29,738 nt of DNA. Source: a virus. Under the pieces are notes generated by a model. The model was given only the letters and a program-made list of their open reading frames with translations, searched no databases and had not been told where the DNA came from. Location of the stretch: positions 1 to 29,738 of IMG/VR virus record IMGVR_UViG_3300045135_001303, one strand, 5' to 3'. Position 1 is the stretch's first letter; the number at the start of each line of letters is the position of its first letter. Below, in pieces: positions 3,803 through 17,399 of this stretch. Position numbers and translations under genes: made by a program.

Positions 3803-3824
3803 CCCCTAAATGAATTTTTTTTTT

Positions 3825-3901: not shown

Positions 3902-3906
3902 AAATT

Positions 3907-3939
3907 TGGTACTCCCACCCGGATTCGAACCGGGACGAG
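3907..3939 (-). pseudogene. tRNA 3'-half remnant
   Basis: An intact T arm (CCCGG/CCGGG with loop TTCGAAT), acceptor 3' strand TGGGAGT, discriminator A and CCA, but the next tRNA's CCA lies only 8 nt upstream. The whole 5' half (acceptor 5' strand, D arm, anticodon arm) is gone. Probably a deletion between tRNA genes. Confidence 0.8.
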
Positions 3940-3946
3940 TATTTAT

Positions 3947-4023
3947 TGGTAGGCGCGGTGGGACTCGAACCCACAGAACCAACATTTTAAGTGTTGTACG
4001 TATACCTATTCCGTCACGCGCCC
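3947..4023 (-). tRNA. tRNA-Leu (anticodon TAA) lacking the long variable arm
   Basis: Acceptor GGGCGCG/CGCGCCT, Leu-type D arm (TGACGGAATAGG), anticodon stem CAACA/TGTTG with loop CTTAAAA, T stem GTGGG/CCCAC, encoded CCA. The variable loop is about 5 nt; bacterial Leu tRNAs normally have a class II arm of 12 or more. Its 5' end overlaps the 3' end of the HNH gene at 4006-4434. Confidence 0.88.
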
Positions 4024-4434
4024 AATATTTTTTCCTCTATAAGTTTCAGTTTGTGCATGGCAATTCGGACAAAGTATTTTTAGATTTTCTAATCGATGAT
4101 CATTACTTATCCCATTTACATGATCAACTTCTAAACTTATAGGATTGTTTAACCATTCTTTATTTCCACAACATTCACATTTATGTTCCTTCACGCCTTC
4201 TTCAATCAAACGAATACGCAATTTATTTGATTGATATTGTGGATGTAAACCTTCCAGAATTTCTGTTAATGGTATTTTAGAATTATTCGGTTTTAATGTA
4301 CCCTTGCCACCTTGATTTGGTACATATAATCCTAATTTAATCGCTTTTCTTTTAAACGTTGAAAAAGGCATGTTAAGTAATTCTGCTGCCTTATTCATTG
4401 TATCTGTAGATTGTATGGCTTCTTCTATATTCAT
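4006..4434 (-). CDS. HNH homing-type endonuclease
   Basis: 142 aa. The N-terminal 1-45 looks like a helix-turn-helix (AAELLNMPFSTFKRKAIKLG). The HNH domain spans about 84-130: zinc pairs C86/C89 and C122/C125, catalytic D104-H105, N107, N117 and H126. It would cut or nick DNA and promote its own spread. The C-terminus GRVTE and stop lie inside the 5' end of tRNA-Leu, so the insertion joint is at the tRNA. The start region carries a 9-bp inverted repeat (4435-4471) that would place the AAAGAG ribosome site in a hairpin loop. Free-standing homing endonucleases next to tRNA genes are well known in T4-like phages. Confidence 0.88.
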   Translation of the reverse strand: MNIEEAIQSTDTMNKAAELLNMPFSTFKRKAIKLGLYVPNQGGKGTLKPNNSKIPLTEILEGLHPQYQSNKLRIRLIEEGVKEHKCECCGNKEWLNNPISLEVDHVNGISNDHRLENLKILCPNCHAQTETYRGKNIGRVTE

Positions 4435-4471
4435 GGTAAACGCTCTTTTTTATTTTATTTATGCGTTTACC
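4435..4471. repeat. Inverted repeat before the HNH start codon
   Basis: Perfect 9-bp arms GGTAAACGC and GCGTTTACC separated by 19 AT-rich bases. In the mRNA the 3' arm ends directly at the ATG and the ribosome site sits in the loop. It may hold down translation early in infection, as shown for some T4 homing endonucleases. Confidence 0.6.
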
Positions 4472-4504
4472 ATTTTCTACCGTTCCACCATGGGAGCAAA
4501 ACTT

Positions 4505-4723
4505 TTATTCAGAAAGAACTTTCCTTACAAGGTCATCGATCTGATCTTGTTGAGATTCGTGATTACTTTTATCTCGGGCGGAAACCGCTGCGTGAGATCC
4601 TGCAAGTGTCAAAAAGTCAGCTTGAATCTGGCTAATTTCAGAATTCAGATTAACGATTTCTTTTTTATTTTCTGCGTTTTCATTTAACAATGCAATGCCA
4701 AAAATAAGTGCTACAAGTTCCAT
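4505..4723 (-). CDS. Hypothetical protein, short hydrophobic N-terminus and coiled coil, 72 aa
   Basis: Residues 1-13 (MELVALIFGIALL) are hydrophobic; the rest is polar, Glu/Gln/Asn-rich and helical, probably a coiled coil. GGAG lies 6 nt before the ATG. It sits between tRNA-Arg and the HNH gene. Function unknown; perhaps a small membrane-associated protein. The hydrophobic stretch is too short to assert a full transmembrane helix. Confidence 0.65.
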   Translation of the reverse strand: MELVALIFGIALLNENAENKKEIVNLNSEISQIQADFLTLAGSHAAVSARDKSNHESQQDQIDDLVRKVLSE

Positions 4724-4739
4724 TTCATTCTCCAGTATA

Positions 4740-4816
4740 TGGCACTCCCGGCAGGACTCGAACCTGCAACCCCCGGTTTAGAAGACCGGTGCTCTATCCA
4801 GTTGAGCTACGGAAGC
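4740..4816 (-). tRNA. tRNA-Arg (anticodon TCT), second copy
   Basis: Acceptor GCTTCCG/CGGGAGT, anticodon stem CCGGT/ACCGG with loop CTTCTAA, T arm GCAGG/CCTGC, encoded CCA. It has the same anticodon as 100-175 but a different anticodon stem, so it is a diverged second gene rather than a recent duplicate. Confidence 0.95.
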
Positions 4817-4824: not shown

Positions 4825-5301
4825 TTATTTATTAAAATCTATTCTATATCTTTTTCCGTTCAATGTAAACACTAAAGTTGAAAAATCATAAACTTTTTTT
4901 GGCTTATTGACATATGTTACTACGTCTGTGCAAGATTGTTCACGACGGTATCCTTTTACATATTGTTCAGTCTTAGGCTTGCTGCCTTTATCTGCACCAA
5001 TTACTCCACCCATAATAGCACCAGCAGCAGCGCCTTTATCGTCACCGGTAATACCTTTACCGATAGCGCCACCAAGGATCATACCAAGTAGTGCATTACC
5101 ACCTGCCCCACCGTTACGATCTACCTGACGTGTACCATACACAGGAACATCTACCATTTCACATTGTCTGTCAACAACCTCTACGGTATCATAGATTGTT
5201 CTGTAATGGTGCCGTACCTCGCCACTGACTTGTTCACCAGCCGTAGCGACAGTTACACTTGTCAGTGTTAGAATAGTGGAAATCAATAAAGGAGTTTTCA
5301 T
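4825..5301 (-). CDS. Glycine-zipper periplasmic or outer-membrane protein
   Basis: 158 aa. N-terminal Sec signal MKTPLLISTILTLTSVTVATA, likely cleaved before GEQ. A glycine-zipper 2TM-type segment (about 70-105; GGNALLGMILGGAIGKGITG then AAAGAIMGGVIGADKG) resembles the 17-kDa surface antigen/SlyB family. Several Cys flank it. It would be exported to the host envelope; superinfection exclusion or envelope modification is possible but unproven. The start chosen (5301) makes an ATGA overlap with the upstream gene, implying translational coupling. A promoter-like sequence lies inside its last codons (4841-4869). Confidence 0.8.
   Translation of the reverse strand: MKTPLLISTILTLTSVTVATAGEQVSGEVRHHYRTIYDTVEVVDRQCEMVDVPVYGTRQVDRNGGAGGNALLGMILGGAIGKGITGDDKGAAAGAIMGGVIGADKGSKPKTEQYVKGYRREQSCTDVVTYVNKPKKVYDFSTLVFTLNGKRYRIDFNK
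4841..4869 (-). promoter_or_regulatory. Possible internal promoter for tRNA-Arg and the genes below
   Basis: TTTACA (4864-4869), 17-bp spacer, TAGAAT (4841-4846), inside the final codons of the glycine-zipper gene and about 25 nt before tRNA-Arg. It matches the spacing used at every other promoter here but lacks the AGGGG extension. Confidence 0.45.
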
Positions 5302-5504
5302 GTTAATTTCCATTCAACCATTTCAGAGATTGCATATTCTACCCCCTGGAGATAGTCACGATCTTCTTCACTTAAAACTGACCAAAACTTACGTACAGAA
5401 TGATATAGATCCATAACATATAAGGTCTCGTATAGATGTGCGTTATGTTCCATACATCGCTGAAGTTCATCCATACGCTTCTGGATCTTATCTTCGATTT
5501 TCAT
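5298..5504 (-). CDS. Hypothetical phage protein, 68 aa
   Basis: MKIEDKIQKRMDELQRCMEH..., an all-helical, charged small protein with no recognised motif. AAGGAG lies 8 nt before the ATG, and the promoter at 5528-5556 is immediately upstream. It is translationally coupled (ATGA) to the exported glycine-zipper protein, suggesting the two are made together. Confidence 0.75.
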   Translation of the reverse strand: MKIEDKIQKRMDELQRCMEHNAHLYETLYVMDLYHSVRKFWSVLSEEDRDYLQGVEYAISEMVEWKLT

Positions 5505-5559: not shown

Positions 5560-6717
5560 TTATATCAGAATATTTTCAATCTTTTCTTCCAGAGCGGCAT
5601 GATAGCTATCATCTGCAATTAGCGGTGACGTGAGCTTCAGAACATAAGGTCGGTATTTTGTGCTTAGTCCGCCAGACATATATTTTTCGTGAGGTATATC
5701 TTCATGGAAATCGATTGCTAAGAAACAGCCAACAGACCTGTATCCAGCAATGCGATCGCCTAATCTTTGGCACATTTCTATGTTTTTTCTCTCTACGGTA
5801 TTACTGTGTTCTAGTAAGTTATCCCGCTTAATAATATCCGTGGTTTTATTCATAGCAGCAACAGCACCCATTGAAGGGTTCCAAGCATGGCCGTACATAA
5901 ACATTGGAACCCGACTAAAAACTTTTTCGTTCCAGACAGTAAGTCCAAACGGAGCATGACCAGCTGCGATAGATTTACCAAGAGCACTGATATCAGGCTT
6001 TACGCCGTCGCCAATCCCGGTAAAACTCTGCCATGTACCAACCTTACCCCAACAAGCAGTAATGTCGTCCAGAATCATAAGAACGTCATACTTGTCGCAA
6101 AGTTCTCTCAATCTATGCCACCAATTTTTACTGAAAGGCATAACTCCATTAAACCAAGCAACGGGGTTAAATATCACCCCGCCAACATCACCTTGTTTAA
6201 AATACTCTTCGGTGTCTGCTAATGCGCGTTCTTCTTCTAGATCGCGATCCTCGTACTTAAGCCAATTTGGCGTATCTACGTTTAAGATCCTAGATGAATT
6301 CAGAACATTTTGTTTTAAATTATTTAATCCACGAGTAATATAAGTGGTACCATGCCAAACTGGAGTATAAGAAAGAATCTTGGTCTTTCGCGGATCTTCC
6401 TTGGCCCAATACTCATCATGAGCAGCAATAGCCGCTTCGACCGCGCTTGTTCCTGAAGTCATAAACTTCATAGCTCGCCAGTTATCGTTGCCTGATCCGT
6501 AGACAGATTGTCTTAACTTTTCAATCTCAGGATGGCTTTCATCCCAGTATGGAATAACACGAGACACCGATTTAAGTTGCTCCGCCATAGCATCAATAAT
6601 TTCATGATTAGAGAACCCCAGAGTATATGCGCTCTGGGAACACTCTACATCTAGAGCCTTCGATCCATCGCTGTAATGGATCCACCATTTTTCCGTTTTT
6701 ACAATTTCTCTTGACAT
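5560..6717 (-). CDS. Class III PLP-dependent aminotransferase
   Basis: 385 aa, slightly short for the family (about 420-450). Visible class III landmarks: TSGTSAVEAA (87-96, phosphate binding), WHGTTY (121-126, the YHG-type stacking segment), ILDDITACWGKVG (215-227, pyridine-N aspartate), and LGKSIAAGHAPFG (246-258) with the Schiff-base Lys at 248. It would move an amino group onto a keto or aldehyde substrate, perhaps a glycan building block. It is the last gene of the glycan operon; its ATG overlaps the TAA of the gene before it. Enzymes of this class are unusual in phages. Substrate cannot be deduced; glutamate-1-semialdehyde aminomutase-like enzymes are the nearest style by motif. Confidence 0.85.
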   Translation of the reverse strand: MSREIVKTEKWWIHYSDGSKALDVECSQSAYTLGFSNHEIIDAMAEQLKSVSRVIPYWDESHPEIEKLRQSVYGSGNDNWRAMKFMTSGTSAVEAAIAAHDEYWAKEDPRKTKILSYTPVWHGTTYITRGLNNLKQNVLNSSRILNVDTPNWLKYEDRDLEEERALADTEEYFKQGDVGGVIFNPVAWFNGVMPFSKNWWHRLRELCDKYDVLMILDDITACWGKVGTWQSFTGIGDGVKPDISALGKSIAAGHAPFGLTVWNEKVFSRVPMFMYGHAWNPSMGAVAAMNKTTDIIKRDNLLEHSNTVERKNIEMCQRLGDRIAGYRSVGCFLAIDFHEDIPHEKYMSGGLSTKYRPYVLKLTSPLIADDSYHAALEEKIENILI

Positions 6718-7310
6718 TATTTATTCACAATCTCTACATTATCTGGTTTCGGAAATTTAAGATTACCATGCTTATGGTGAAGAATGAATTGGGTATCTGA
6801 AAACTCTTCAAAAAGATTTTTCCAAATTGGTCTCCAGTTATTCATAAGACGGTGATTGTTTGTATCACCGCGATCCGAATTAAGATAAAAATCAGTACAG
6901 CTACGCAAATTAGGGTCAAACATAGAATCGAATCCATAGAGGTGAATCTCAGATCCACCAATTTTATTTGCCGCATAATGGGTGCACATATGACCACAGT
7001 TAAAGTTAGTATATCCATTGGCATAAGCTGGAAGAGTTAAATAAAACTCTTTAATATTCTGAGCCCATTTTAATCTAAATTCAGGATATTTTTCTAAGAA
7101 TTTTTGTGGTCTAAATCCTAAGATCCATTGACCTGGCGGAAATACACTACCTTCACGCATAGCATGCATCATTTTAAAATCTACAATGCATGTTGCATAT
7201 GCACCTTCGACAGCAAACGGGGGAAGGTTACACGTTAACTTAACCCCCTTGCTTGGCTTGTACATACCAGCATTGTCGCCATTTCCAATTACATGAACTA
7301 CTCTACCCAT
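6717..7310 (-). CDS. DUF115/GT42-like protein of the glycan operon
   Basis: 197 aa. Starts with a Rossmann-type strand-loop VVHVIGNGDNAG (4-15), like the GNG-S motif of DUF115 and of GT42 sialyltransferases, and later has HLYGFDSMF (123-131), also typical of them. It may be a sugar-transfer or sugar-phosphate enzyme. It overlaps the upstream glycosyltransferase by 8 nt and the aminotransferase by 1 nt. The family assignment rests on two motifs only and could be wrong. Confidence 0.55.
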   Translation of the reverse strand: MGRVVHVIGNGDNAGMYKPSKGVKLTCNLPPFAVEGAYATCIVDFKMMHAMREGSVFPPGQWILGFRPQKFLEKYPEFRLKWAQNIKEFYLTLPAYANGYTNFNCGHMCTHYAANKIGGSEIHLYGFDSMFDPNLRSCTDFYLNSDRGDTNNHRLMNNWRPIWKNLFEEFSDTQFILHHKHGNLKFPKPDNVEIVNK

Positions 7311-7941
7311 TCATTAACTTCCTAATATGTTCCTTACCTACTCTGCCAGTCCAATGATACACCAATGGATCTTTTGGCAACGTTTTATCTATATGCTGTA
7401 AACGAAGCACATTATAGCGATTAGGAATATCCTCAATAAACTGCATACGCTTAAGTGGGGAATCATCCATCATTATATGTAAGACTTCTTGATCGCCTTG
7501 CATGGGAGCTGTTGTACAAGATGTTTCCCAATCCGTTAAGATTGATGGTGTACCTTTATAAGCCACTACGCCAGAATTATGCCACATTGTACCGCGGCGA
7601 GAAGTCCAAGGTTTATCTATGGCCATCGAAAGTTTTTGTTGATGGACATAGTCGAAAATACCACTTAGATCACCAAGAACCTCACAGTCGGTGTCTAACC
7701 AACACACCTGTTCTGCAAATGCTGATGCAATTCTCATGGCCTTAGGTTTTTTAAACCAACCTCGTTCACTCCCGCGCACGCTCTTGCGTATGTCCGCGTA
7801 CGCGCTCGTCTCCATACCAAAGTCCATAATCATAAGCGGGGTGTCATTGTGCTTACGATACGTCTCTACAAACCACGGCAGCATCCATTCTGTAGATGCA
7901 TCACAGCCTGTAATAAACAGTTTAGAGGATTTTATATTCAT
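7303..7941 (-). CDS. GT-A glycosyltransferase, GT8-like
   Basis: 212 aa. DxD motif D83-T-D85 in CWLDTDCEVLGDL, preceded by KPKAMRIASAF, the layout of metal-dependent GT-A enzymes; a later NSGVVAYKGTP matches the acceptor-side loop and H-W near 190 the C-terminal metal ligand region. It transfers a sugar from a nucleotide-sugar in the cytoplasm; donor and acceptor unknown. Its start overlaps the upstream gene by 20 nt. Confidence 0.8.
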   Translation of the reverse strand: MNIKSSKLFITGCDASTEWMLPWFVETYRKHNDTPLMIMDFGMETSAYADIRKSVRGSERGWFKKPKAMRIASAFAEQVCWLDTDCEVLGDLSGIFDYVHQQKLSMAIDKPWTSRRGTMWHNSGVVAYKGTPSILTDWETSCTTAPMQGDQEVLHIMMDDSPLKRMQFIEDIPNRYNVLRLQHIDKTLPKDPLVYHWTGRVGKEHIRKLMNG

Positions 7942-8566
7942 TATTAAATTTGTGCTTCGACCAGCACCCTTCTATTTTCTGGATTGTTGTAAACGTATCT
8001 CGTGCCTGTACTGGCCACGGATAATACTCCTCTAACCAGGGAAAGCGACCTTTGTGTAGAAATACATCTGTCGGTCCAGCATCTACGTGAGCCCGTTCAA
8101 TAAAAGCTCTAGCACCAGCAGGTTTAATCATATAAGCATGTGCACCGGGAAAGTATTGTTTGGACGTTAGTGGATTAACGCCAAGCTTCATAGGAGCCTG
8201 TGCTTTACCATAACTTGGCTGCCCGATATTAATGGCTTTGTCGTACTGCATAAACACATTGACTTGATCTACAAAATATGCGTCATGTTCTAGTATCATA
8301 TAAGACGTGTTATCTTTTACACACTTCTCCCACAAAGAGTAGTGGGAAAGGAATGCAGACACACAGTTTTCAAATCGGGAGTAGGTCTCTTCAAATCCCT
8401 TTACCGGTATATTCTTTTTTCGAGCATACCAAAGTGGATCTTTGTCGGGCGTAATAGCTGGGAACTTTTCTACCGTAATACCATATTTGGCCGCAGACTT
8501 AATACACCGTTCTGCAGCTTTTACGGACTCGGGATTTTCCATAATTGTGATTACAAATGATTTCAT
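7922..8566 (-). CDS. GT25-type glycosyltransferase
   Basis: 214 aa from the ATG at 8566, which overlaps the upstream TGA as ATGA; the frame is open further upstream but that would overlap the neighbour. Motifs: SAFLSHYSLWEKC (70-82) and ILEHDAYF (91-98), the SH..LW and EHDA signatures of LPS-type GT25 transferases, where the acidic pair stands in for DxD. GPTDVFLHK follows in the C-terminal third. Paralogue of the next gene upstream (8563-9261). Confidence 0.82.
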   Translation of the reverse strand: MKSFVITIMENPESVKAAERCIKSAAKYGITVEKFPAITPDKDPLWYARKKNIPVKGFEETYSRFENCVSAFLSHYSLWEKCVKDNTSYMILEHDAYFVDQVNVFMQYDKAINIGQPSYGKAQAPMKLGVNPLTSKQYFPGAHAYMIKPAGARAFIERAHVDAGPTDVFLHKGRFPWLEEYYPWPVQARDTFTTIQKIEGCWSKHKFNNEYKIL

Positions 8567-9261
8567 AGTGATGTTGTCGAGCCGAAGCCCAACACCTTTG
8601 TATAATATTCTTTTGTAATGCCAAGAGTCGGAACAAGCTGCCGACACATAAGAGCGTCATTTGGCCATAGACCATATTCATCAACCAAATCTAACATCTT
8701 CTTAGCACCGCTTGGTTTCATTATATATGCACTATTTCCAGCAATACCTTGTGGAATACTTAGATCATCAATTACCGGAGGTCTTTGAAGTACATCTTTG
8801 TTTTTTTCAACTGCAATAAAATAGTCACGTGCTTTTCTTGTCGCGTCTCTTGGATCATTAATACCAATTATATCATATTTTGATTCAAGAATATACTGGT
8901 AATTTAATGTCTTAGTAAAAACTGCGTCATGTTCAAGGACCAAAATAGGCTCATCTTCATAATAACATTTTTTCCAAAGAGCGTAATGACTAAGAGCGCA
9001 GGCAATTCTAGCTTTTGGATTTCGGGTTGGATACGGGCTTTTAAGTAATCCAGAAGCCCAGTCAAGCTCTGCTTTTTCCCACGGATAATTCCATTTGATC
9101 TTATATGAATCCATAATAGAGTCTAGATTGTCATCGTATGTAATAGCAGCAAATCGTTTTAGTGGAAACGATTGCATAGATGATTCCCAGCTCTGTTTTA
9201 GCTTATTAAAACCATTCTTAGAACCTTCATGGTCCCACATTGTAATTGCAAAAGCTCTCAT
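8563..9261 (-). CDS. GT25-type glycosyltransferase, paralogue
   Basis: 232 aa. ACALSHYALWKKC (87-99) and LVLEHDAVF (107-115) match the downstream paralogue and GT25 enzymes; GNSAYIMKPSGAKKML matches that gene's HAYMIKPAGARAF. ATGA overlaps at both ends show tight coupling. Two different GT25 enzymes in a row suggest two sequential linkages, or acceptors, in one glycan. Confidence 0.82.
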   Translation of the reverse strand: MRAFAITMWDHEGSKNGFNKLKQSWESSMQSFPLKRFAAITYDDNLDSIMDSYKIKWNYPWEKAELDWASGLLKSPYPTRNPKARIACALSHYALWKKCYYEDEPILVLEHDAVFTKTLNYQYILESKYDIIGINDPRDATRKARDYFIAVEKNKDVLQRPPVIDDLSIPQGIAGNSAYIMKPSGAKKMLDLVDEYGLWPNDALMCRQLVPTLGITKEYYTKVLGFGSTTSL

Positions 9262-9767
9262 TTCTTTAACTCATTCAAATGGGGAAATTCATTCATATCA
9301 GTTTTAACTCCTAAGAATTGTGCAAGCTTTTGCGGGGATTCGCCTGCAATAATATCTATAGTTAGCATACGATCACCAAACCAGGTACGTACATCTACAT
9401 CATGTCGATCCCACGCTTTACTTGCTTGATCACGGCTCGGAAAGGGATTCCCGTATAACATCCGGCGAACGTTCACTTGTCCCTGGGATTGTTGCCATTG
9501 TCTTTTACGTTCAAGATAAGGAACAATAGAATTTAACCATTGTCCCTTATCTCTTACTGTATACACAAACTTCGATCCGGGAAATCTTAAATCTAATTCC
9601 CGAAAGTTTAAAGCTGCGGGAATATCTGTAGCGCCATGACTTTTTGGATCCCAGAGTTGCTGCTCATTAGGGTAGTGAATGGTGTTCCACCCCCATTGGT
9701 TCAGGACATTATTTAAAGTAGTTGTTCCTGTTCGGGATAGTCCAATACCAAATACCTTAAATGTCAT
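9258..9767 (-). CDS. Sulfotransferase (P-loop, PAPS-binding)
   Basis: 169 aa. GIGLSRTGTTTLNNVL (7-22) is the 5'-phosphosulfate binding loop; FVYTVRDKGQW (67-77) has the Arg-Asp typical of the 3'-phosphate binding strand. It would transfer sulfate from PAPS, which the host must supply. A GTG start at 9782 is possible, but the ATG at 9767, with GAGG and GGGG just upstream, is preferred. Lies between a GT-A and a GT25 gene, so the acceptor is probably the glycan made by this operon. Some proteins of this fold are annotated only as sulfotransferase-like, so activity is inferred. Confidence 0.75.
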   Translation of the reverse strand: MTFKVFGIGLSRTGTTTLNNVLNQWGWNTIHYPNEQQLWDPKSHGATDIPAALNFRELDLRFPGSKFVYTVRDKGQWLNSIVPYLERKRQWQQSQGQVNVRRMLYGNPFPSRDQASKAWDRHDVDVRTWFGDRMLTIDIIAGESPQKLAQFLGVKTDMNEFPHLNELKK

Positions 9768-10575
9768 AACCCCAGTCCTCACGTGGTAGGTTTACTACTT
9801 TGAGTAGCTGTTCTTCACCCATATCATCTGCACCAGGGAACTGACAGTGCACCAACTTAGTGTTCTCATCACGCCAATCTACAATACGACGTACGGGATT
9901 AATCTTATCTTTTGTGCCATGGATATAGGTATTCCAACCAGCATCCATAATCTGTACATCGAATCCCTTAGCAAACATCATTGCATGCAAATAAGGCTGA
10001 TCACACGTATAGAAGCTATCTAATCCAGCTGCACGTATAAGCTTTACGTAACTGTCAAATTGAACAAAATCCTTTTGTGCTTTCTTGCGTCCAGCAGCAG
10101 AGTATAGTACCATCCCAGTATTATAGACCCGGACCAAACCATCCTCTGTACGTGGCATAGGCACACCGTAGGCGCGCTCAACGGTCTTTGCCCATAGGTT
10201 ATCTGCTTCTGATGTGATGCGTCCTAGCGTGATTGTACGTTGCTTAGGCTGGAATGGCTCTTCACAGATACCGATCTCTCCGTGGAAAGCATCAAAGATA
10301 TTTTCTTCTAGTCCATCAACTGCAAACACATCTGTGTCTGCAAATAGAATCTTGTCATACTGATCCCACGCCGGATCGTACAGTGGCTTAAACGCCCCGT
10401 AGTGTGGCGAGTATTTACCGAAGTCCATTTTCTTCGCAGTTCGTAACCAATTTGGATTATCTTCGAACAAATAGTCTGCACCGATACGATCAGCATAGGC
10501 TTTCATGTTGTTGACGCCGGCGTGCACGCTCGCGCGAACATTACCATCCCAATATTGATAGATTGCTGTCTTCAT
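9757..10575 (-). CDS. GT-A glycosyltransferase (paralogue group A, 1)
   Basis: 272 aa. DxD at D80-T-D82 in ILFADTDVF; YNTGMVLYS about 130-138 is the following acceptor loop, and a His near the C-terminus (LVHCQFPG) fits the third metal ligand. Its N-terminus, IYQYWDGN...NNMKAYADRIGADY, is shared with the genes at 12174 and 13515, so these three are paralogues. Donor sugar unknown. ATGA overlap with the FkbM gene. Confidence 0.82.
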   Translation of the reverse strand: MKTAIYQYWDGNVRASVHAGVNNMKAYADRIGADYLFEDNPNWLRTAKKMDFGKYSPHYGAFKPLYDPAWDQYDKILFADTDVFAVDGLEENIFDAFHGEIGICEEPFQPKQRTITLGRITSEADNLWAKTVERAYGVPMPRTEDGLVRVYNTGMVLYSAAGRKKAQKDFVQFDSYVKLIRAAGLDSFYTCDQPYLHAMMFAKGFDVQIMDAGWNTYIHGTKDKINPVRRIVDWRDENTKLVHCQFPGADDMGEEQLLKVVNLPREDWGYDI

Positions 10576-11249
10576 TCTTCTCTCACAAATATATCGTCAA
10601 CGACAATAGTCTTGACTAGTTTATAACCAAGATCCTCTAAGAATTTTTGAGGTTCTTCGCTATGCGGTACGCCTCTTTCTAACTGTATAACAGGAGAACA
10701 TCTTTTAAGGGTCTGCTGCATACCAAGCAGCGGTTCCATGTTATAACCTTCGGTATCTATCTTAATAAAATCAACTACTGGTAGCGAGAACTCGTCGATA
10801 GTAACACACTGAACCTCGATTGGTTCTTGTTCTACGAAATTAGTTCTCTTTTCATTGTTCCAGCGGGTGTCAATAATATGCTGGGTAGCCTCTGACTGAA
10901 CCACGTTTGCACCACTGTTTTGTGGATTAATGTAGATCGTAACTTTTTTATGTTCGTTACCAACGGCAAAGTTAAAGATCTCGATGTTGTCTATGTCTTT
11001 GGTGTTATATTCTAAACATTCGAATAGATCTGGAATCGGTTCAAATGATATGACATGCTCAAATAACTGTGAGAATCGAAGTGCAGTAGTACCAACGTGA
11101 CCGCCAAAGTCTAAGCAGACTCTCGTTTGTTTGAATAGATTTTTACAATATTCCCATTGTGTAATATCATGTTTGTCAGGCTGGAGAAACATCTTTCCAG
11201 CCTGATTCTGATAGTCAGGATACGCTATGCCATTCTTGTTAAATATCAT
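10572..11249 (-). CDS. FkbM-family methyltransferase
   Basis: 225 aa. SAM-binding motif I CLDFGGHVGTTAL (45-57), motif with ISFEPIP (67-73), and the FkbM signature VDFIKIDTEGYNMEPLLGM (158-176). FkbM enzymes O-methylate sugars or polyketides with S-adenosylmethionine. Here the likely acceptor is a sugar of the glycan. ATGA overlap downstream and an 11-nt overlap upstream place it firmly in the operon. Confidence 0.87.
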   Translation of the reverse strand: MIFNKNGIAYPDYQNQAGKMFLQPDKHDITQWEYCKNLFKQTRVCLDFGGHVGTTALRFSQLFEHVISFEPIPDLFECLEYNTKDIDNIEIFNFAVGNEHKKVTIYINPQNSGANVVQSEATQHIIDTRWNNEKRTNFVEQEPIEVQCVTIDEFSLPVVDFIKIDTEGYNMEPLLGMQQTLKRCSPVIQLERGVPHSEEPQKFLEDLGYKLVKTIVVDDIFVREE

Positions 11250-12177
11250 AGTACTCTTTATACCACTCTACAAAGTTACGTACACCATCAGAAACGTCGG
11301 TGGTGGATGCATAACCAAGTTTCTGGATCTTGGTAGTATCGCTCCAGGTTTCTTTTGCATCAGCTGGATGCGCCGGCTGGAAGTCGTAGGTAGCTTGACC
11401 ATTGCCCACGTTCTTTTCAATCTCGTGGATAAAGTCCATGAGATTTACTTGTTTACCGTTACCAATACAGTATGTGTCACGCGGGGTCATGTTCTGTGAC
11501 ACCAACCAAATGCCTTGAACAATATCATCTACGTAAGTAAAGTCCCGCTTCATATCACCGTTATTATAAACGATAATCGGCTTATCCTCAAGAATGTTTT
11601 TGGTGAACGTAAACAGTGCCATGTCTGGTCGACCGTATGGACCGTACACAGTAAAGAAACGGAGGCAAACCGCATTCTTAATCTTTGACACATGGAACTG
11701 ATGTTCGTTAGTCAGTTTGGTGTATCCATACGGACTTAGCTGTGCACCTACTTTATCAGACTCGTTCCAAGGTAAAGGATTGCCTTCCATGGTGCAAGAT
11801 GTGGATGCGTAGATTACATTGTCTACACCGGCTGTCTCGCACGAGTTAATTACACATTGTGTACCGTGAATATTGTTGTCGATATACTGTAATGGTTCTT
11901 CAAGTGATACACGCACACCCGCACTTGCTGCAAGATGAATAACTAGATCCGGTTGCACCTCTAGCATATAGGCAGTAAGATCCTTAGAGCGAATATCCAT
12001 GTTAATAACATTAATATCGTTTTTCCAAAGAATCTCTTTCCTAGACTCTTTTAGAGATGGGTCATAGTAGGAATTAAAATTATCAACCCCCTGTACTTCC
12101 CAGCCATTTTCTCTATACTTAAGTGCTGTATGGAATCCAATGAATCCTGCAATACCAGTAATGAATACCTTTTTCAT
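11239..12177 (-). CDS. NAD-dependent nucleotide-sugar epimerase, UDP-glucuronate 4-epimerase-like
   Basis: 312 aa, a full-length extended SDR. GIAGFIG (8-14) binds NAD; D32 after the second strand selects NAD; the catalytic triad is S125/T126, Y150 and K154 (YGYTK). FFTVYGPYGRPDMA (about 174-187) is diagnostic for the UDP-GlcA 4-epimerase/CapI group rather than GalE. It would make a C4-epimerised donor, such as UDP-galacturonate, for the neighbouring transferases. It is the only clear donor-sugar enzyme in the window. Confidence 0.88.
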   Translation of the reverse strand: MKKVFITGIAGFIGFHTALKYRENGWEVQGVDNFNSYYDPSLKESRKEILWKNDINVINMDIRSKDLTAYMLEVQPDLVIHLAASAGVRVSLEEPLQYIDNNIHGTQCVINSCETAGVDNVIYASTSCTMEGNPLPWNESDKVGAQLSPYGYTKLTNEHQFHVSKIKNAVCLRFFTVYGPYGRPDMALFTFTKNILEDKPIIVYNNGDMKRDFTYVDDIVQGIWLVSQNMTPRDTYCIGNGKQVNLMDFIHEIEKNVGNGQATYDFQPAHPADAKETWSDTTKIQKLGYASTTDVSDGVRNFVEWYKEYYDI

Positions 12178-12842
12178 ATTAGTCCTCTTTCAACCAAAGC
12201 CTTATAGTTTTCGATCTTGGCTTGCTTTGGTCCGCCTTGTTTAATCTTTGTACGTATATGCACTATGTATGAGTCTTCTACGTTTTCTTCGAAGCTGCTC
12301 TTGTTCCACATATCACGGGTTAAATAATTCGCTTTATGGTTCTTAATACCAGCAAGAACTGCAAGACGATGCATGATGCCTTCATCCTCATAGTTACCAC
12401 TGAATTGAATTACCTCATTACACCGTATTTGCTCACGGAGTTTAACCCTCATTGTACGGTCTAATCGATAAATTGATCCACCCCAGTAAGCATAGTTTGG
12501 ATCGCCAAGCAGGGGGAATCTTCGCGTTAGATTACGCACTAGAGTTTCTTGGATATTATAATGTCGCCCTACCCCCGTCTCATCGCGAAAGATATCCTTG
12601 TCGATATTCTTCCGTACAAACATATCCGGATCCATCATAACAACGGTATCATATTCGTCGAACTGAGGATCTAGCATAATAAGTTTTTGGCATGGGCTCG
12701 TAAGACCTTGCTGAAAAGGCTGACCCCGAATTAAGCGATGATCAGCCCCAAGTGAGTGTGCATAATTTTTTATATTAGAAACGGAAAGGCGGGCAAGTTC
12801 ATCTAGGTCTCCGTCCCAATGTTGTAGTATAATATTATTCAT
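12174..12842 (-). CDS. GT-A glycosyltransferase (paralogue group A, 2)
   Basis: 222 aa from ATG 12842, which forms an ATGA overlap with the upstream sulfotransferase; a TTG three codons earlier is less likely. DxD at D71-P-D73 in VVMMDPDMFV; WGGSIYRLD later is the acceptor-side loop. N-terminus IILQHWDGD...NIKNYAHSLGAD matches the paralogues at 9757 and 13515. Confidence 0.8.
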   Translation of the reverse strand: MNNIILQHWDGDLDELARLSVSNIKNYAHSLGADHRLIRGQPFQQGLTSPCQKLIMLDPQFDEYDTVVMMDPDMFVRKNIDKDIFRDETGVGRHYNIQETLVRNLTRRFPLLGDPNYAYWGGSIYRLDRTMRVKLREQIRCNEVIQFSGNYEDEGIMHRLAVLAGIKNHKANYLTRDMWNKSSFEENVEDSYIVHIRTKIKQGGPKQAKIENYKALVERGLI

Positions 12843-13522
12843 GGTGTCCAATAATTTTTAGTTGCAGGCCCCTCAAAAGTAAAACCCCAACGGGCGATAT
12901 CAGTTTTGAACCAGTCAGCAATAATATTTGCAGTTTTTTCATTATAGTAAGATCTATAGTCGTCTTCGTAAATCCCCTTATTTACTACAGGTATTTGTAC
13001 CTTTTTTCCTAGATAGTTAGTAAGATCTTCTTGTAAGTTTTCATATCTCAGGACGTCCGCTTTGTATGCATAATTTTTTCCGTCTACTACCCAGTCTGAT
13101 TGACAAGCCCATTGATCGTAGGGAAAGGCCCGATAGAATCCCGGGGTCATTTTAAATTTTAATCTGCGATCTAAAAATTCTTCGAACGAAATCTTACTTT
13201 GATTGTACCATTTATCATTTATCAGCGCCCGGATCCTGTCTGCATAATTATATAAAGAAACCGCCCGGGACCATGGGTTTCTTACTACAGTAAACACCGA
13301 ATCAAATCTGCCTAGTACCGATCTATCTAAATAAGAATAAGGTAAGTGTTTAAAGAATGGCGGTATAGGCCGGATTTCCATAACATAATTCGGATCCATC
13401 TCTTCGATTGATTTCATCTTATTGTTAATATATCTAACACTAACAGGCAGCGCCGAATTAGACTGGACAATTGCTCCTCCTGCTGTTTTAGGTATATGTA
13501 TGAAAAGAGGGGGTCTAGACAT
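12839..13522 (-). CDS. Carbohydrate sulfotransferase (family 2 type)
   Basis: 227 aa. FIHIPKTAGGAI (7-18) is the PAPS 5' loop of the sulfotransferase-2/Gal-3-O type, and FTVVRNPWSRAVSLY (77-91) the 3'-phosphate site with R81 and S85. WACQSDW and DVLRYENLQEDL follow the family layout. It is more clearly a carbohydrate sulfotransferase than the one at 9258. Works in the cytoplasm with host PAPS. Second sulfotransferase of the operon, flanked by two GT-A genes. Confidence 0.85.
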   Translation of the reverse strand: MSRPPLFIHIPKTAGGAIVQSNSALPVSVRYINNKMKSIEEMDPNYVMEIRPIPPFFKHLPYSYLDRSVLGRFDSVFTVVRNPWSRAVSLYNYADRIRALINDKWYNQSKISFEEFLDRRLKFKMTPGFYRAFPYDQWACQSDWVVDGKNYAYKADVLRYENLQEDLTNYLGKKVQIPVVNKGIYEDDYRSYYNEKTANIIADWFKTDIARWGFTFEGPATKNYWTP

Positions 13523-14300
13523 CCATCATTAACTCTTGTACGTTTTCACCTTTGCCGGGGAGTTTATCTTTTAAAAAGAAATGAATGAAATGTGCCTGTT
13601 TAATATGATCGTCCCGTACGCCTTTATATAAGGCATTAAATTTCCAGTCAAGGTTTTTGACTTTCATCTTAGATTCTTTTACGAACACGTTTAGGAGTGT
13701 TTGATCGGTACTCCACTTCCATGCACCCATACCATCAATGAATGGTTTAAACTCTGGGCGCCGAAGAAACTGTAATGGAGTTTCACCATTCAGGTATTGA
13801 TTAAACGATTTGTTTAAAACCATAATACCCATATTGTAGAAGTCTGCACCTGCATCATTCCAATCAAAGAGTTTGTTTAGCGGTGCCATGCCGTACTGCA
13901 TACGAGAGTAGTTTATAATCTTTGCCTTATACTGCGGCGTGATCGGCATAGATCTTTCTAGAACCCCACCAAAGCTATAATCAGAAGGTAGCTCATCAAA
14001 GATAGATGGAGCGTCATCCCTAATATAACAGTCAGCATCGATAATCGCCACTTGGTCGTACTCTCTAAGATAGGCGAACGCATTCTCCTTTTCGTAGATC
14101 GGTAAGAAACCGCCGTGTTTCTCATAGCTTTCTTTGCTCCTGTTTGTCATGAATACATCAGGCTTAATCATAAGAATAGGAGTACGCTGAACAACGTACT
14201 CCGCACCAATACGTTTTGCATAGGCCTTTACACTTGCCGTGCAGTGATCGTATAGCTTAGATTTCTTTCCAAGATATACTTGATAGACTAGTTTTTTCAT
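13515..14300 (-). CDS. GT-A glycosyltransferase (paralogue group A, 3)
   Basis: 261 aa. DxD at D88-A-D90 in VAIIDADCYI; NMGIMVLNKS (about 155-164) is the acceptor loop, and HFIHFFLKDK near the end holds the expected C-terminal His. N-terminus LVYQVYLGK...SVKAYAKRIGAEY matches 9757 and 12174. ATGA overlap with the 63-aa gene upstream. Confidence 0.82.
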   Translation of the reverse strand: MKKLVYQVYLGKKSKLYDHCTASVKAYAKRIGAEYVVQRTPILMIKPDVFMTNRSKESYEKHGGFLPIYEKENAFAYLREYDQVAIIDADCYIRDDAPSIFDELPSDYSFGGVLERSMPITPQYKAKIINYSRMQYGMAPLNKLFDWNDAGADFYNMGIMVLNKSFNQYLNGETPLQFLRRPEFKPFIDGMGAWKWSTDQTLLNVFVKESKMKVKNLDWKFNALYKGVRDDHIKQAHFIHFFLKDKLPGKGENVQELMMDV

Positions 14301-14488
14301 TTTGAGTTTTCTACAATTCGTTCAGCAATTTCCATAGCTTCGGCCCAGCCTTCTTTAAATCGGTTACTCTTATAACTATGTTCAATAAAGGATTTAAGGC
14401 CTGAGATAGAACTATCTATATCAGTATTTAGATTCCGTGCCAGTTCTTCCCATTGACTACGAAGATTTAGAATTTCAAATACGCTCAT
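14297..14488 (-). CDS. Hypothetical protein, 63 aa
   Basis: MSVFEILNLRSQWEELARNL..., all-helical, no recognised motif. Its stop overlaps the ATG of the next glycosyltransferase (ATGA), so it is made as part of the operon. Function unknown. Confidence 0.7.
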   Translation of the reverse strand: MSVFEILNLRSQWEELARNLNTDIDSSISGLKSFIEHSYKSNRFKEGWAEAMEIAERIVENSK

Positions 14489-14504
14489 GCTTTATACCTT
14501 TTCA

Positions 14505-15155
14505 TTAAATTCTTTGCCAAGTTCCCCGTTCATTGCTCCACGGTACGTCAAAATCAAATACTTTTACCTCTTTAGAAAAACTATCTAAAACGTCTTTCCA
14601 ACGGATGATGGGGATATGGACTTTTAAGATCATTCGTTCTTCATCAGAATTATTTACTACGCCGTGGAATTCATGAACATTAAGGAGAATAGGAGAGGTG
14701 TAATGGTGATTATCGATATAATCTCCTGCTACATGTGGGTCTTCCGTGCTATCCTCATATAGGTCGATTATCGTTTTTCCTCGAAGAGGAACGTTTACAC
14801 TCGACATAGCACGGATAAACGACGCAGTATGCGGTGGCAATACACCGTGAGGAGGCATGCGAATAAAAGTATATTTCAATGTATGTTTGAATTCGTTAAA
14901 GTCCAAACTAGAGCCCATATTCTTCATCAGCTGCTCGAATATATTAGTCAGCTCAATCCAATGCTTCATTTCGGAAATATTACCGTAATCAATATGATAA
15001 GTGGTTTGTCCACCAGTGACATTTTTATATTGATCGTTGTCTATTTCTTTATCAAAGAAATCGTTGATTGCTTGAATTTCTGAAGTAGCATCATAGTCAA
15101 TTTCAGCTAGTCGATTATCAAATACCTTTTTAAATTTATCCAATAACATATTCAT
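14505..15155 (-). CDS. Aspartyl/asparaginyl beta-hydroxylase-like oxygenase
   Basis: 216 aa. MPPHGVLPPHTASFIRAM (100-117) and EFHGVVNNSDEERMILKVHIP (162-182) give the cupin pattern H109...H164...R174 of 2-oxoglutarate/Fe(II) oxygenases. The usual HxD acid is replaced by Ala111 (HTA). The AspH family also lacks that acid and works with two His, so activity is still possible. NVPLRG (121-126) is typical of AspH-like domains. Substrate unknown: a protein side chain or a glycan lipid chain are both conceivable. Second gene of the operon. Confidence 0.65.
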   Translation of the reverse strand: MNMLLDKFKKVFDNRLAEIDYDATSEIQAINDFFDKEIDNDQYKNVTGGQTTYHIDYGNISEMKHWIELTNIFEQLMKNMGSSLDFNEFKHTLKYTFIRMPPHGVLPPHTASFIRAMSSVNVPLRGKTIIDLYEDSTEDPHVAGDYIDNHHYTSPILLNVHEFHGVVNNSDEERMILKVHIPIIRWKDVLDSFSKEVKVFDFDVPWSNERGTWQRI

Positions 15156-15711
15156 AGACCTCTTTCCAGTTTTTCATAAGGGGGACTCCGTCATAGTGCA
15201 TATTATGCCCGTGTTCAATAAGAATAGAGTCTAGATTATAGTCAACTCCAAGTTCTGCATTCTCGATCTTGTCTTCAATCCATACATCAAACGAATTAAT
15301 GTATGGCTCAAGAGCTTCATCTTTATCTGCTCCGGTGTCGCAATAAACAAACTTTTCAAATACCGTTTCACCGAACAGTTTCTTGAGGTTTTGTTCACGA
15401 AGCATCTGTGCATTACGATCAAGTGAAAGAGAAGTAATCACGTGAAATACATAGCCATGCTCTTCGTGTAGCTTGCGAACATAATGAATAGCATCACGCA
15501 AAGGAGGAAGGAATCCAATTGCTGCAGACTCATTAAACATTTTAATTAGCTTACGTTTCTTTTTGTCTGAAATTCCATAGCGAGTACCCATGTCATATTC
15601 ACTCGAGACCAAAGAAAGATCTTCTTCATAGCCGTGGCTTTTCATCCATACGTTAAAAGCATATTCCCAGTTCAGAAGTACTCCATCAACATCAGTCAAA
15701 ATTCTCATCAT
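15136..15711 (-). CDS. HAD-superfamily phosphatase, 5'-nucleotidase-like
   Basis: 191 aa. Motif I DVDGVLLNW (8-16) with the nucleophile and acid aspartates, motif II VITSLS (about 91-96), and a late acidic motif DVWIEDKIENAE. This fits HAD phosphatases near the 5'(3')-deoxyribonucleotidase/NT5C type. It could dephosphorylate nucleotides, or sugar phosphates in view of the operon. GGAG lies 5-7 nt before the ATG, and the promoter at 15733-15761 is directly upstream, so it leads the long operon. Confidence 0.75.
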   Translation of the reverse strand: MMRILTDVDGVLLNWEYAFNVWMKSHGYEEDLSLVSSEYDMGTRYGISDKKKRKLIKMFNESAAIGFLPPLRDAIHYVRKLHEEHGYVFHVITSLSLDRNAQMLREQNLKKLFGETVFEKFVYCDTGADKDEALEPYINSFDVWIEDKIENAELGVDYNLDSILIEHGHNMHYDGVPLMKNWKEVYEYVIG

Positions 15712-16015
15712 ATTCTCCTTTATATACTAATGATTGTACCTCATTTTCATATTGTTGTAAATATCTTTTTCCTGATTTTCGGATATTTTTTCCGGTGTAC
15801 CAGTATAACCAGCTATGAAGACAATGGTCTACGTCACGACGAATAATGAAATCTATAAGCCAACAGATGTTCCATCTGCCAGATCTTTTCCATCCGTAAT
15901 TCCTAGCGGAAAAGGTCTGGTTAGCCGATCCGCCAAGAATTACGTTAACCAAGACGGATAGGGCAATACCTACCCTAAGAAGATACTGGCTCGTCCGTAT
16001 CTTTAGCCACTTCAT
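15692..16015 (-). CDS. Conserved small phage protein with hydrophobic N-terminus, 107 aa
   Basis: The residues LLRVGIALSVLVNVILGG form one hydrophobic segment, followed by NQTFSARN, and later DHCLHSWLYWY, a combination I associate with small uncharacterised proteins of large phages. The start is uncertain: the ATG at 16015 overlaps the upstream 63-aa gene by 41 nt, and no strong ribosome site is seen. Its 3' end contains the promoter of the next operon (15733-15761). Function unknown. Confidence 0.65.
   Translation of the reverse strand: MKWLKIRTSQYLLRVGIALSVLVNVILGGSANQTFSARNYGWKRSGRWNICWLIDFIIRRDVDHCLHSWLYWYTGKNIRKSGKRYLQQYENEVQSLVYKGEYDENFD
15733..15761 (-). promoter_or_regulatory. Promoter of the glycan operon
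   Basis: TTTACA (15756-15761), 17-bp spacer, TACAAT (15733-15738), inside the last codons of the 107-aa gene and about 20 nt before the HAD start codon. No other promoter of this type is seen down to 5556, so it may drive all fifteen genes, with read-through from above. Confidence 0.7.
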
Positions 16016-16166
16016 CCACAATAACCCACTCAAGCTGTGTGCCTTTATATTTGTGAATTTGTTTCGTATCATCTGCATCGCGAATTCTAACATCCTTACC
16101 AAGTGAACGAAACTTGTTGCGTCCATTCTTTTTATTGCGTGGGTCGTATCGTGAATATTTAGCCAT
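15975..16166 (-). CDS. Hypothetical basic protein, 63 aa
   Basis: MAKYSRYDPRNKKNGRNKFR..., a very basic N-terminus followed by a mixed domain. Its start overlaps the stop of the oxygenase gene by 8 nt. Resembles conserved orphan proteins of T4-like phages; possible nucleic-acid binding through the basic tail, without proof. Confidence 0.65.
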   Translation of the reverse strand: MAKYSRYDPRNKKNGRNKFRSLGKDVRIRDADDTKQIHKYKGTQLEWVIVDEVAKDTDEPVSS

Positions 16167-16713
16167 TTTTTATTACCGCTAAGCTAGTTCTGCTTCCTTT
16201 TTTAATTTCTGTAACACCATGTAGGGTATCTCCATCCCAGTAAATACAGTCGCCTATATCTGGGTTTATTACTTCAAGGGGTTTACGATTCATATTGGCT
16301 TTTACCCCAAAATAATCCCAGAGTTCCCAACAATCTCCTATAACTACCTCGCCACCTTCCAGGTCATCGGTTTTATCCAGTGTTATGGTAGTTACATGAA
16401 GTGAGAATTTACTCTCACCATTAAAAAATTCTTCTTTCGATTGTAAAACATTATCTATATGAAGATTAAAAAAGTTACCTTTACTATAAATGTTTCCACG
16501 AATAGTGTGTATAGGATCTCCATACGGATAAGTGTTATCCTCCAGATATTTTATTAAATCCTCACCTAATACTTCTTTCCATACAGGTAACCCCATTTCG
16601 CCCTTAGGTACACCGATACTCGCAGCACCGCCGTAAGGTTTAAACCTAATTTGAGGATTGTTACGTAGAGCTTTAAGAAGTAGTTCTACCTTTTGGAGAT
16701 CTAGCTTTTTCAC
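16159..16713 (-). CDS. 2-oxoglutarate/Fe(II) oxygenase, prolyl-hydroxylase type
   Basis: 184 aa from a GTG at 16713 that overlaps the phoH stop (GTGA) with GGGGAT 6 nt upstream; an upstream ATG would lie deep inside phoH. Iron ligands HID (85-87) and H165; 2OG-binding R175 in GSRTSL. YWDGDTLHGV (158-167) is the usual second-His strand. It would hydroxylate a protein, nucleotide or small molecule. 2OG oxygenases are abundant in marine T4-like phages, mostly without known substrates. Confidence 0.82.
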   Translation of the reverse strand: MKKLDLQKVELLLKALRNNPQIRFKPYGGAASIGVPKGEMGLPVWKEVLGEDLIKYLEDNTYPYGDPIHTIRGNIYSKGNFFNLHIDNVLQSKEEFFNGESKFSLHVTTITLDKTDDLEGGEVVIGDCWELWDYFGVKANMNRKPLEVINPDIGDCIYWDGDTLHGVTEIKKGSRTSLAVIKNG

Positions 16714-17399
16714 TTGATCCCCAACATTTCTTTTGTCATAATATAGTCTCGTACAAATCCTGAACGTACAATATCTTTCCAAGTAAACTCTGTAATCTCA
16801 AATCGTGCCATGTCTTCCACAATACGCATGAACTGAAGAATACCATTTTTCTCGTCGGCATCATCGAAGTCTGACTGGTAGTAGTCTCCGGACATAATCA
16901 TACGACAGTTATTACCTACACGTGTAGCAACAGTATCAAGCTCGTGGAAGTTTAAGTTCTGCATCTCATCTACTAGGATAATAGCATTGTGATAGGATGT
17001 ACCACGAAGGAACGATGTAGGTTCAAATGTCACGCGTCCAGCTTGTTCCAGTTTACCCCACGCTTCTTTGTTATTAAAGATCTCGGTCATAAGCTGCTGA
17101 TAAGGCTTCTTATATGGATCCAGCTTTTCTTCCATACCGGGAAGAAAGCCAATGTCGCGCGAGGGCACGATCGAGCGAACGATCACCAGTTGTTCATAGG
17201 GACTTTCTTTATCGAGCACCGCTTCCATAGCAAAGCGAATACCCATATAAGTTTTACCGGTACCAGCAGATCCAGAAAGTACAAGATGATTACGTTCATC
17301 CTTCCAGTCTTCGTATGCTTTACCTTGATTAGGGGTTAATGCTTCGAATGGTTTAAGATGCTCGACTCGAATAGCATTCGATGAATATGATCTAGACAT
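16710..17399 (-). CDS. phoH: PhoH-like ATPase
   Basis: 229 aa. Walker A GSAGTGKT (43-50), RSIVPSRDIGFLPG (about 75-88), Walker B AIILVDEMQN (about 138-147) and a sensor-type MIMSGDYYQSD follow the PhoH family exactly. It is a cytoplasmic P-loop ATPase related to helicase cores and thought to act in RNA metabolism or stress; the phage role is not settled. Common in marine phages. Coupled by GTGA to the oxygenase gene. Confidence 0.93.
   Translation of the reverse strand: MSRSYSSNAIRVEHLKPFEALTPNQGKAYEDWKDERNHLVLSGSAGTGKTYMGIRFAMEAVLDKESPYEQLVIVRSIVPSRDIGFLPGMEEKLDPYKKPYQQLMTEIFNNKEAWGKLEQAGRVTFEPTSFLRGTSYHNAIILVDEMQNLNFHELDTVATRVGNNCRMIMSGDYYQSDFDDADEKNGILQFMRIVEDMARFEITEFTWKDIVRSGFVRDYIMTKEMLGIK

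What the first reader, a model, noticed from the sequence alone, without database searches (positions are those of the whole stretch)
5560..15711. Fifteen-gene phage glycan operon
Almost every gene boundary is an ATGA or short overlap, so these genes are translated as a unit. They encode at least six glycosyltransferases, a UDP-glucuronate 4-epimerase-like enzyme, two sulfotransferases, an FkbM methyltransferase, a class III aminotransferase, an AspH-like oxygenase, a HAD phosphatase and a DUF115/GT42-like protein. This exceeds DNA-glucosylation or simple O-antigen conversion modules. It could build a decorated oligosaccharide on virion proteins, on modified DNA, or on the host surface.
Basis: partly seen in the sequence, partly recalled or inferred. 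Interest (0 to 1): 0.85.

Follow-up and report, generated by a model that had tools for sequence, protein, structure and literature searches.

The report
Swappable glycan-building locus in marine phages
An uncultured T4-like virus of marine bacteria carries a dense run of about a dozen soluble sugar-handling genes, and the same locus, with fixed end genes and a swapped middle, recurs in hundreds of related viruses, so these viruses seem to change a decorated sugar chain much as bacteria change their surface serotype.

Summary
Fifteen same-strand ORFs fill 5560-15711; 13 of 14 junctions overlap and one has a 16-nt gap. Six GT-A-type glycosyltransferases, two sulfotransferases, an FkbM methyltransferase, a UDP-glucuronate 4-epimerase-like SDR and a class III aminotransferase are supported and keep catalytic motifs. 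"AspH-like" found no database support and "DUF115/GT42-like" only weak fold support. Middle genes evolve under purifying selection (dN/dS 0.04-0.08).

Between them lies a 1.3-7.9 kb centre drawn from 44 gene families. Near-identical phages carry different centres. It resembles an O-antigen locus but encodes almost no predicted membrane protein, no flippase and no polymerase.

Most likely it assembles a strain-variable, sulfated and methylated oligosaccharide in the cytoplasm. I favour a virion protein as acceptor (about 0.5), then host LOS/LPS core (0.3), then DNA (0.07). The acceptor is inferred, not shown. GT-rich islands in marine T4-like phages are known (pelagimyophages); the fixed-edge/swapped-centre architecture at a different genome position is a new variant.

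The parts
15136..15711 (-). HAD-superfamily phosphatase-like (phrog_420); left border, present in 28 of 58 loci
   Evidence: PF06941 23.7 bits (cut-off 24.8), phrog_420 3.8e-34; DVDGVL motif I
14505..15155 (-).
   Evidence: no Pfam, no PDB hit; conserved LPPHxASFIRA and HGVVN...ER motifs
14297..14488 (-). 63-aa helical-looking small protein, ATGA-coupled to GT8; possible adaptor
   Evidence: present upstream of GT8 in 42 of 58 nonredundant loci, alignment
13515..14300 (-). GT8-like retaining GT-A glycosyltransferase; left constant border, invariant DAD motif
   Evidence: PF01501 0.0018; 103 relatives in IMG/VR; 76% mean column identity
12839..13522 (-). sulfotransferase (ST2), PAPS loops PKTAGG and RNPWSRAVSLY; variable centre
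   Evidence: PF00685 2.8e-06, phrog_3347 galactose-3-O-sulfotransferase 6e-12
12174..12851 (-). GTc, GT-A glycosyltransferase (DPD motif) related to GT8/GTb; variable centre
   Evidence: single-linkage cluster with GT8/GTb ORFs; alignment
11239..12177 (-). UDP-glucuronate 4-epimerase-like SDR; variable centre
   Evidence: PF01370 4.5e-50; PDB 5u4q 1.4e-69, 6zl6/6zla 1.7e-50, MoeE5 8e-34; phrog_540 nucleotide-sugar epimerase
10572..11249 (-). FkbM-type methyltransferase; variable centre
   Evidence: PF05050 1.1e-19, phrog_8156 3.4e-31
9757..10575 (-). GTb, GT-A glycosyltransferase (DTD motif); variable centre
   Evidence: cluster with GT8/GTc; 87-89% identical in L002/L003
9258..9782 (-). sulfotransferase (ST4), 5'-PSB loop SRTGTTTL; variable centre
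   Evidence: PF17784 4.1e-20
8563..9261 (-). GT25b, right constant border, EHD motif
   Evidence: PF01755 9.7e-16; at least 585 relatives in IMG/VR
7922..8566 (-). GT25a (likely ATG at 8566; mechanical ORF starts GTG 8647), EHD motif
   Evidence: PF01755 3.1e-12; 53 of 53 loci downstream of GT25b
7303..7941 (-). GTa, glycogenin-like GT-A glycosyltransferase (DTD motif), right constant border
   Evidence: AF2 pLDDT 93.9; Foldseek to glycogenin 1.6e-10, TM 0.6-0.7
6717..7310 (-). DUF115-like protein (GNG motif at N-terminus), right constant border
   Evidence: AF2 pLDDT 90; BFVD match to a DUF115 protein 2.1e-4; PF01973 0.09; no PDB fold match
5560..6717 (-). class III PLP aminotransferase; accessory, 32-36% relatives in a few loci at the same side of the cassette
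   Evidence: PF00202 4.5e-44
16710..17399 (-). PhoH-like ATPase; conserved flank of the locus
   Evidence: PF02562 4.1e-41; 41 of 58 loci
4825..5313 (-). exported glycine-zipper-type protein following the right border in 21 of 51 loci; link to the glycan unproven
   Evidence: signal-like N-terminus and G-rich repeats

Best explanation
A glycan-type locus of lytic marine T4-like phages. A constant set of soluble glycosyltransferases (GT8, GT25b, GT25a, GTa, DUF115-like) lays down a shared stem on a conserved acceptor. A swappable central block supplies donor sugars (here a UDP-glucuronate to UDP-galacturonate epimerase; elsewhere UDP-galactopyranose mutase or a DegT + Gfo/Idh + hexapeptide-acyltransferase set), further GTs (GTb, GTc) and decorations (two sulfotransferases, FkbM methyltransferase), so each phage lineage makes a different chain. 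In this phage the product would be a uronic-acid-containing, sulfated and methylated oligosaccharide. Since nearly all enzymes are soluble and no lipid-carrier transferase, flippase or polymerase is encoded, assembly is in the infected cell's cytoplasm directly on the acceptor. I propose that the acceptor is a virion protein (fibre or head decoration) and that the variation serves escape from recognition or altered attachment. Shown: gene families, motifs, selection, synteny, centre swapping, near-absence of membrane proteins. Inferred: enzyme order, donor identity, acceptor, benefit.
For: Fixed borders in two independent recruitments: 47 loci with GT8..GT25b; among loci recruited by GT25b alone, 53/53 have GT25a, 52/53 GTa, 53/53 DUF115, 48/53 in exact order, and 42/50 have GT8 upstream. 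Centre swapping: L072 vs L038 share 88-97% DNA identity on both sides, but a 2.9 kb centre is replaced by 6.5 kb; same for L031 vs L033; GT8 98-99% identical with centre-content Jaccard 0.23. The window is itself a mosaic: GT8-GTc-Epim-GTb-ST4 82-92% to L002/L003, but HAD 98%, small protein 97%, PhoH 91%, GT25b 88% to L116. Centre families are sugar-nucleotide and decoration enzymes. 249 of 254 centre ORFs lack a hydrophobic segment. Purifying selection. GTa resembles glycogenin, a protein-priming GT. GT8 is 76% conserved across loci, which fits a phage-borne constant acceptor. In cyanophages and one cassette-bearing phage, a GT25 + GT_PLOD + lysyl-hydroxylase-like protein co-occurs with collagen-like GXKG fibres, precedent for GT25 domains working on virion fibres.
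Against: No glycoprotein has been measured and no acceptor gene is known to co-segregate with the cassette. The cassette body is depleted of the late promoter TATAAATA (0.015/kb against 0.097/kb overall), so it is probably not expressed with virion genes. GT25, GT8 and GT42-like enzymes also build bacterial LOS cores. The locus lies beside PhoH and gp32, not beside fibre genes. Published authors favour host O-chain modification for GTs in related pelagimyophages (PMC7029224).
Confidence: 0.5

Rival explanations
1. The enzymes extend the host's own LOS/LPS core in the cytoplasm before it is flipped by host MsbA, changing the infected cell's surface to exclude competing phages or stop progeny re-adsorbing to debris.
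For: GT25 and GT8-type enzymes are classic LPS/LOS outer-core enzymes and need no phage flippase (established knowledge; PF01755 is described as LPS biosynthesis); variation resembles bacterial surface loci; no late promoter in the cassette body; authors of PMC7029224 argue this for pelagimyophage GTs.
Against: Border enzymes are rather constant for host-specific core acceptors; no gtr-type or other membrane component seen; nothing links the set to a host gene.
Confidence: 0.3
2. The locus glycosylates hydroxymethylated or otherwise modified DNA bases, with variation driven by restriction enzymes.
For: Phage GTs often modify DNA; a thymidylate-synthase-type protein exists in 2 of 12 contigs and G001 has a hypermodification-like module at 33.9-40.8 kb.
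Against: Ten of 12 contigs, including the nearly whole G003, show no PF00303 match; Tet_JBP and C5-methylase 0 of 12 (the Tet control did not ring, and several contigs are fragments). Sulfotransferases and a six-GT chain are unlike known DNA glucosylation modules (own knowledge).
Confidence: 0.07
3. Not one pathway but a loose accumulation of auxiliary sugar genes in a recombination hot spot, without one product.
For: High turnover of the centre (44 families in 47 loci); accessory genes such as the aminotransferase occur in few loci.
Against: Conserved order of four border genes in 48 of 53 loci, purifying selection, near exclusivity for sugar-related functions among identifiable centre genes.
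Confidence: 0.08

Closest known systems
Hypervariable host-recognition cluster with glycosyltransferases in pelagimyophages (Zaragoza-Solas et al. 2020, PMC7029224)
   Same: Marine T4-like phages, hypervariable island, several GTs with GT8 most common
   Different: That island lies between VrlC and gp14 with tail fibres; this one lies between exo/PhoH and gp32 and has fixed GT borders. GT8 here has no tblastn match in cultured phages.
Bacterial O-antigen, capsule and LOS loci
   Same: Fixed flanks, swapped centre of GTs, sugar-nucleotide and decoration genes
   Different: No initiating transferase, flippase, polymerase or ligase; almost all soluble; constant border genes are themselves GTs; in a phage
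Mycobacteriophage virion glycosylation (Freeman et al. 2023, cited in PMC12619734)
   Same: Phage-encoded GTs; glycan on virion proteins there, proposed here
   Different: Shown there, not shown here; here many GTs plus sulfation and methylation
Giant-virus fibril glycan clusters (Megavirinae, PMC10117803)
   Same: Virus-encoded clade-specific sugar pathways decorating the particle; GT25-type enzymes (PDB 9crz R655 is the best GT25b profile match)
   Different: Eukaryotic host and unrelated virus
Phage DNA glycosylation clusters (T4 gt; Pyle et al. 2024, cited in PMC12619734)
   Same: Phage GTs
   Different: No base-hydroxymethylating partner in most contigs; sulfotransferases present

Membership tests
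Pelagimyophage host-recognition cluster | position between VrlC and gp14, with tail fibres | tested here: not met
   in G001 and G003 the cassette lies between exo/PhoH and gp32 (gp32 at the start of the linear G003 record); L110, L156, L163 and L173 also have gp32 downstream
Bacterial O-antigen/capsule locus | membrane initiating transferase, flippase, polymerase | tested here: not met
   249 of 254 centre ORFs without KD>1.6 segment; none of the Pfam-scanned centre families is a membrane transporter; KD cut-off is crude
Phage DNA hypermodification | nucleotide or base hydroxymethylase (PF00303-type, or TET plus C5-methylase) | tested here: not met
   0 in window; 2 of 12 contigs PF00303; 0 of 12 PF12851 and PF00145; fragments limit this
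Virion glycosylation system | glycan on virion proteins | not testable with these tools
   needs glycoproteomics
GT25 | PF01755 above curated cut-off and ExD motif | tested here: met
   47.2 and 58.7 bits over 24; EHD in both (alignment)
GT8 | PF01501 above cut-off, DxD | tested here: inconclusive
   18.4 bits under 24.3, DAD invariant or nearly so
Carbohydrate sulfotransferase | Sulfotransfer domain above cut-off and PAPS loops | tested here: met
   PF17784 73 bits; PF00685 27.3 bits over 22; loops present in the sequence
DUF115/GT42 | PF01973 or GT42 domain or fold | tested here: inconclusive
   PF01973 13 bits under 34.6, 5 of 14 members match weakly; no PDB fold; viral DUF115 model 2.1e-4
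AspH-like oxygenase | Asp_Arg_Hydrox or related domain | tested here: not met
   no Pfam or PDB match

The most novel reading that the evidence does not exclude
A phage serotype system: T4-like marine phages switch the sulfated oligosaccharide coating of their particles by recombining whole centre cassettes between fixed glycosyltransferase borders, analogous to O-antigen switching in bacteria but on virions.
Probability: 0.4. Interest if true: 0.82.

Novelty: new variant of a known kind. Interest (0 to 1): 0.62.

Why it matters
Glycosyltransferases are scattered through phage genomes with no agreed purpose. A locus with a constant frame and a swapped centre, whose border gene is found in hundreds of contigs, points to selection for a glycan that varies, and makes the acceptor question directly testable: one constant border enzyme set and one acceptor should serve all these phages. 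If the acceptor is on the virion, phages have serotypes, which bears on host recognition, phage competition and how hosts or grazers recognise particles.

Tried and rejected
DNA-level megablast of the cassette against cultured phages: no match. Aminotransferase in viral contigs: pattern search returned nothing. AspH relatives by pattern in viral contigs: none, although three lie in loci fetched otherwise. PDB profile searches for GT8, GTc and DUF115 gave nothing usable. Late-promoter idea: nine loci have TATAAATA 440-770 bp upstream of GT8 (4.2 expected), but those I could place lie inside the small upstream gene, so I do not read them as promoters. Sigma-70 scan is at chance level (59 found, 52 expected). 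DUF115 in bacterial genomes: of the six hits, four carry the same phage cassette, so they look like binned phage contigs, and do not name a bacterial donor. Collagen-like fibre as the acceptor in cassette phages: only G003 has GXKG repeats, so not general. The small 63-aa gene as a peptide acceptor was considered: no variable core or Cys, rejected as unlikely.
Full report
What is there. The window is a fragment of an uncultured virus record. Fifteen minus-strand ORFs fill 5560-15711 exactly as stated. Thirteen of fourteen junctions overlap; the exception is a 16-nt gap after the 216-aa gene. The next gene (15692-16126) also overlaps, and 16159-16782 overlaps PhoH, so the unit is not closed at 15711. 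Such packing is ordinary for T4-like phages.

Gene identities. Pfam supports a class III aminotransferase, two GT25 enzymes, two sulfotransferases, an FkbM methyltransferase and an NAD-dependent epimerase. The closest solved structures for the epimerase are 5u4q (annotated dTDP-glucose 4,6-dehydratase), 6zl6/6zla and MoeE5; the latter two are, from my own knowledge, UDP-glucuronate 4-epimerases. GTa has a confident model (pLDDT 93.9) with the glycogenin fold. GTb, GTc and GT8 group together by BLAST. All six GTs keep a DxD or ExD metal motif and both sulfotransferases keep PAPS loops (sequence). The protein called DUF115/GT42-like has a confident model without a PDB counterpart, but with several viral relatives, one named DUF115. 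The protein called AspH-like has no database support. Genes are under purifying selection: dN/dS 0.04-0.08 for GT8, GTc, Epim, GTb and ST4 against L003; several other genes have saturated dS.

Host virus. Contigs carrying the relatives encode T4-type gp23. Two nearly whole ones (152.7 and 151.3 kb) carry the T4 core in order and are nearest to phage C48C1, Kyanoviridae. The cassette sits between the exonuclease/PhoH region and gp32. Cultured phages lack the border GT8; GT25b has only partial matches in cyanophages and DUF115 only one good relative, in C48C1.

Architecture. Mapping shows constant borders. In the GT25b-recruited set, 48 of 53 loci with enough sequence keep GT25b-GT25a-GTa-DUF115 in order, and 42 of 50 have GT8 upstream. 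Between GT8 and GT25b lie 1.26 to 7.86 kb with 254 ORFs in 44 single-linkage families. Pfam identifies methyltransferases, a DegT aminotransferase with a Gfo/Idh oxidoreductase and a hexapeptide acyltransferase in one block, UDP-galactopyranose mutase, an HAD-nucleotidyltransferase fusion and a radical SAM-B12 protein. Only 5 of 254 ORFs have a segment of membrane-like hydrophobicity.

Swapping. L072 and L038 are 88-97% identical on both sides but differ in a 2.9 versus 6.5 kb centre; L031 and L033 likewise. Below about 90% GT8 identity, shared centre content is low (mean Jaccard 0.15-0.21). The window is itself mosaic: its GT8 and centre match L002/L003 (82-92% for GT8, GTc, Epim, GTb and ST4; FkbM 69-72%), whereas HAD, the small gene, PhoH and GT25b match L116 (88-98%). 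ST2 is absent from L002/L003.

How it works. With no lipid-carrier, flippase or polymerase genes, the chain must be built in the cytoplasm on its final acceptor or on something the host exports. The near-constant border GTs argue for a constant acceptor; the variable centre argues for selection on the outer structure. A virion protein fits best; host LOS core is the main rival; DNA is disfavoured because hydroxymethylating enzymes are absent from most contigs, with the caveat that many are fragments and the Tet control did not ring. The cassette body is poor in late promoters, which suggests expression before the structural genes, a point against a virion target but not decisive.

Known context. 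PMC7029224 reports GT-rich hypervariable islands in pelagimyophages and argues for O-chain modification. The present locus shares theme and phage type but not position or fixed borders. Literature searches found no description of this arrangement; the library is open-access only.

Side finding. G003 and cyanophages S-8S53, S-8S56, S-CAM9 and S-PRM1, plus the unrelated roseophage CRP-6, encode a protein with GT25, GT_PLOD and 2OG-oxygenase domains (domains scanned for G003 and S-8S53, the rest by full-length tblastn). In all six, a collagen-like fibre with 8-26 GXKG sites, the hydroxylysine glycosylation pattern, is encoded; in five it lies within a few kb of the enzyme and in G003 some 13 kb away in the same fibre region. 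No such run occurs in 2.85 Mb of other loci fetched. This suggests phage-encoded collagen-type lysine hydroxylation and glycosylation of tail fibres, and deserves its own study.

Limits. ORF calling was mechanical; many contigs come from overlapping samples; families are BLAST clusters; the hydrophobicity cut-off is crude; no biochemical data exist.

Noticed in passing
L100:844-2781 (G003 60844-62781); OQ504982.1 15762-17627; MH629685.1 129960-131804; KU686205.1 34413-36257; MK613348.1 33029-34798: PLOD-like phage proteins (GT25 + GT_PLOD + 2OG-Fe(II) oxygenase) co-occur with collagen-like tail fibres rich in GXKG motifs (8-26 sites) in six of six adequate loci and nowhere else in 2.85 Mb fetched; suggests phage hydroxylysine glycosylation of fibres.
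   Followed up: partly
1-4816: 17 tRNA genes clustered within 4.8 kb, interspersed with small ORFs.
   Followed up: no
L090:13905-20000 (G001 33.9-40.8 kb): Thymidylate-synthase-type protein, dCMP-deaminase-like ORF, PLP enzyme and unknowns between primase and UvsX: looks like a DNA hypermodification module.
   Followed up: partly
G003 94236-96055; L107:35326-37226: UDP-glucose dehydrogenase and epimerase pair inside the replication module between primase and UvsX, a donor supply outside the cassette.
   Followed up: no
L002:18809-19405: Signal-peptide protein with 29 collagen-like triplets and a YadA-anchor-like C-terminus in a close relative of the window phage.
   Followed up: no
4825-5313: Exported glycine-zipper-type protein after the right border in 21 of 51 loci; could be an outer-membrane partner.
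   Followed up: partly
19596-20213 and 4006-4434: Two HNH-endonuclease-like ORFs, the first being the only sizeable plus-strand gene in the window; probable mobile endonucleases (by motif only).
   Followed up: no
23156-25792: NrdA/NrdB pair; NrdA nearest (58-60%) to roseophage and rhizobial phage enzymes, hinting at an alphaproteobacterial host.
   Followed up: no
L110-L115: Phage contigs with this cassette or its DUF115 gene appear inside bacterial MAGs (Rhodobacteraceae, Flavobacteriaceae and others), likely binning artefacts or infection.
   Followed up: partly
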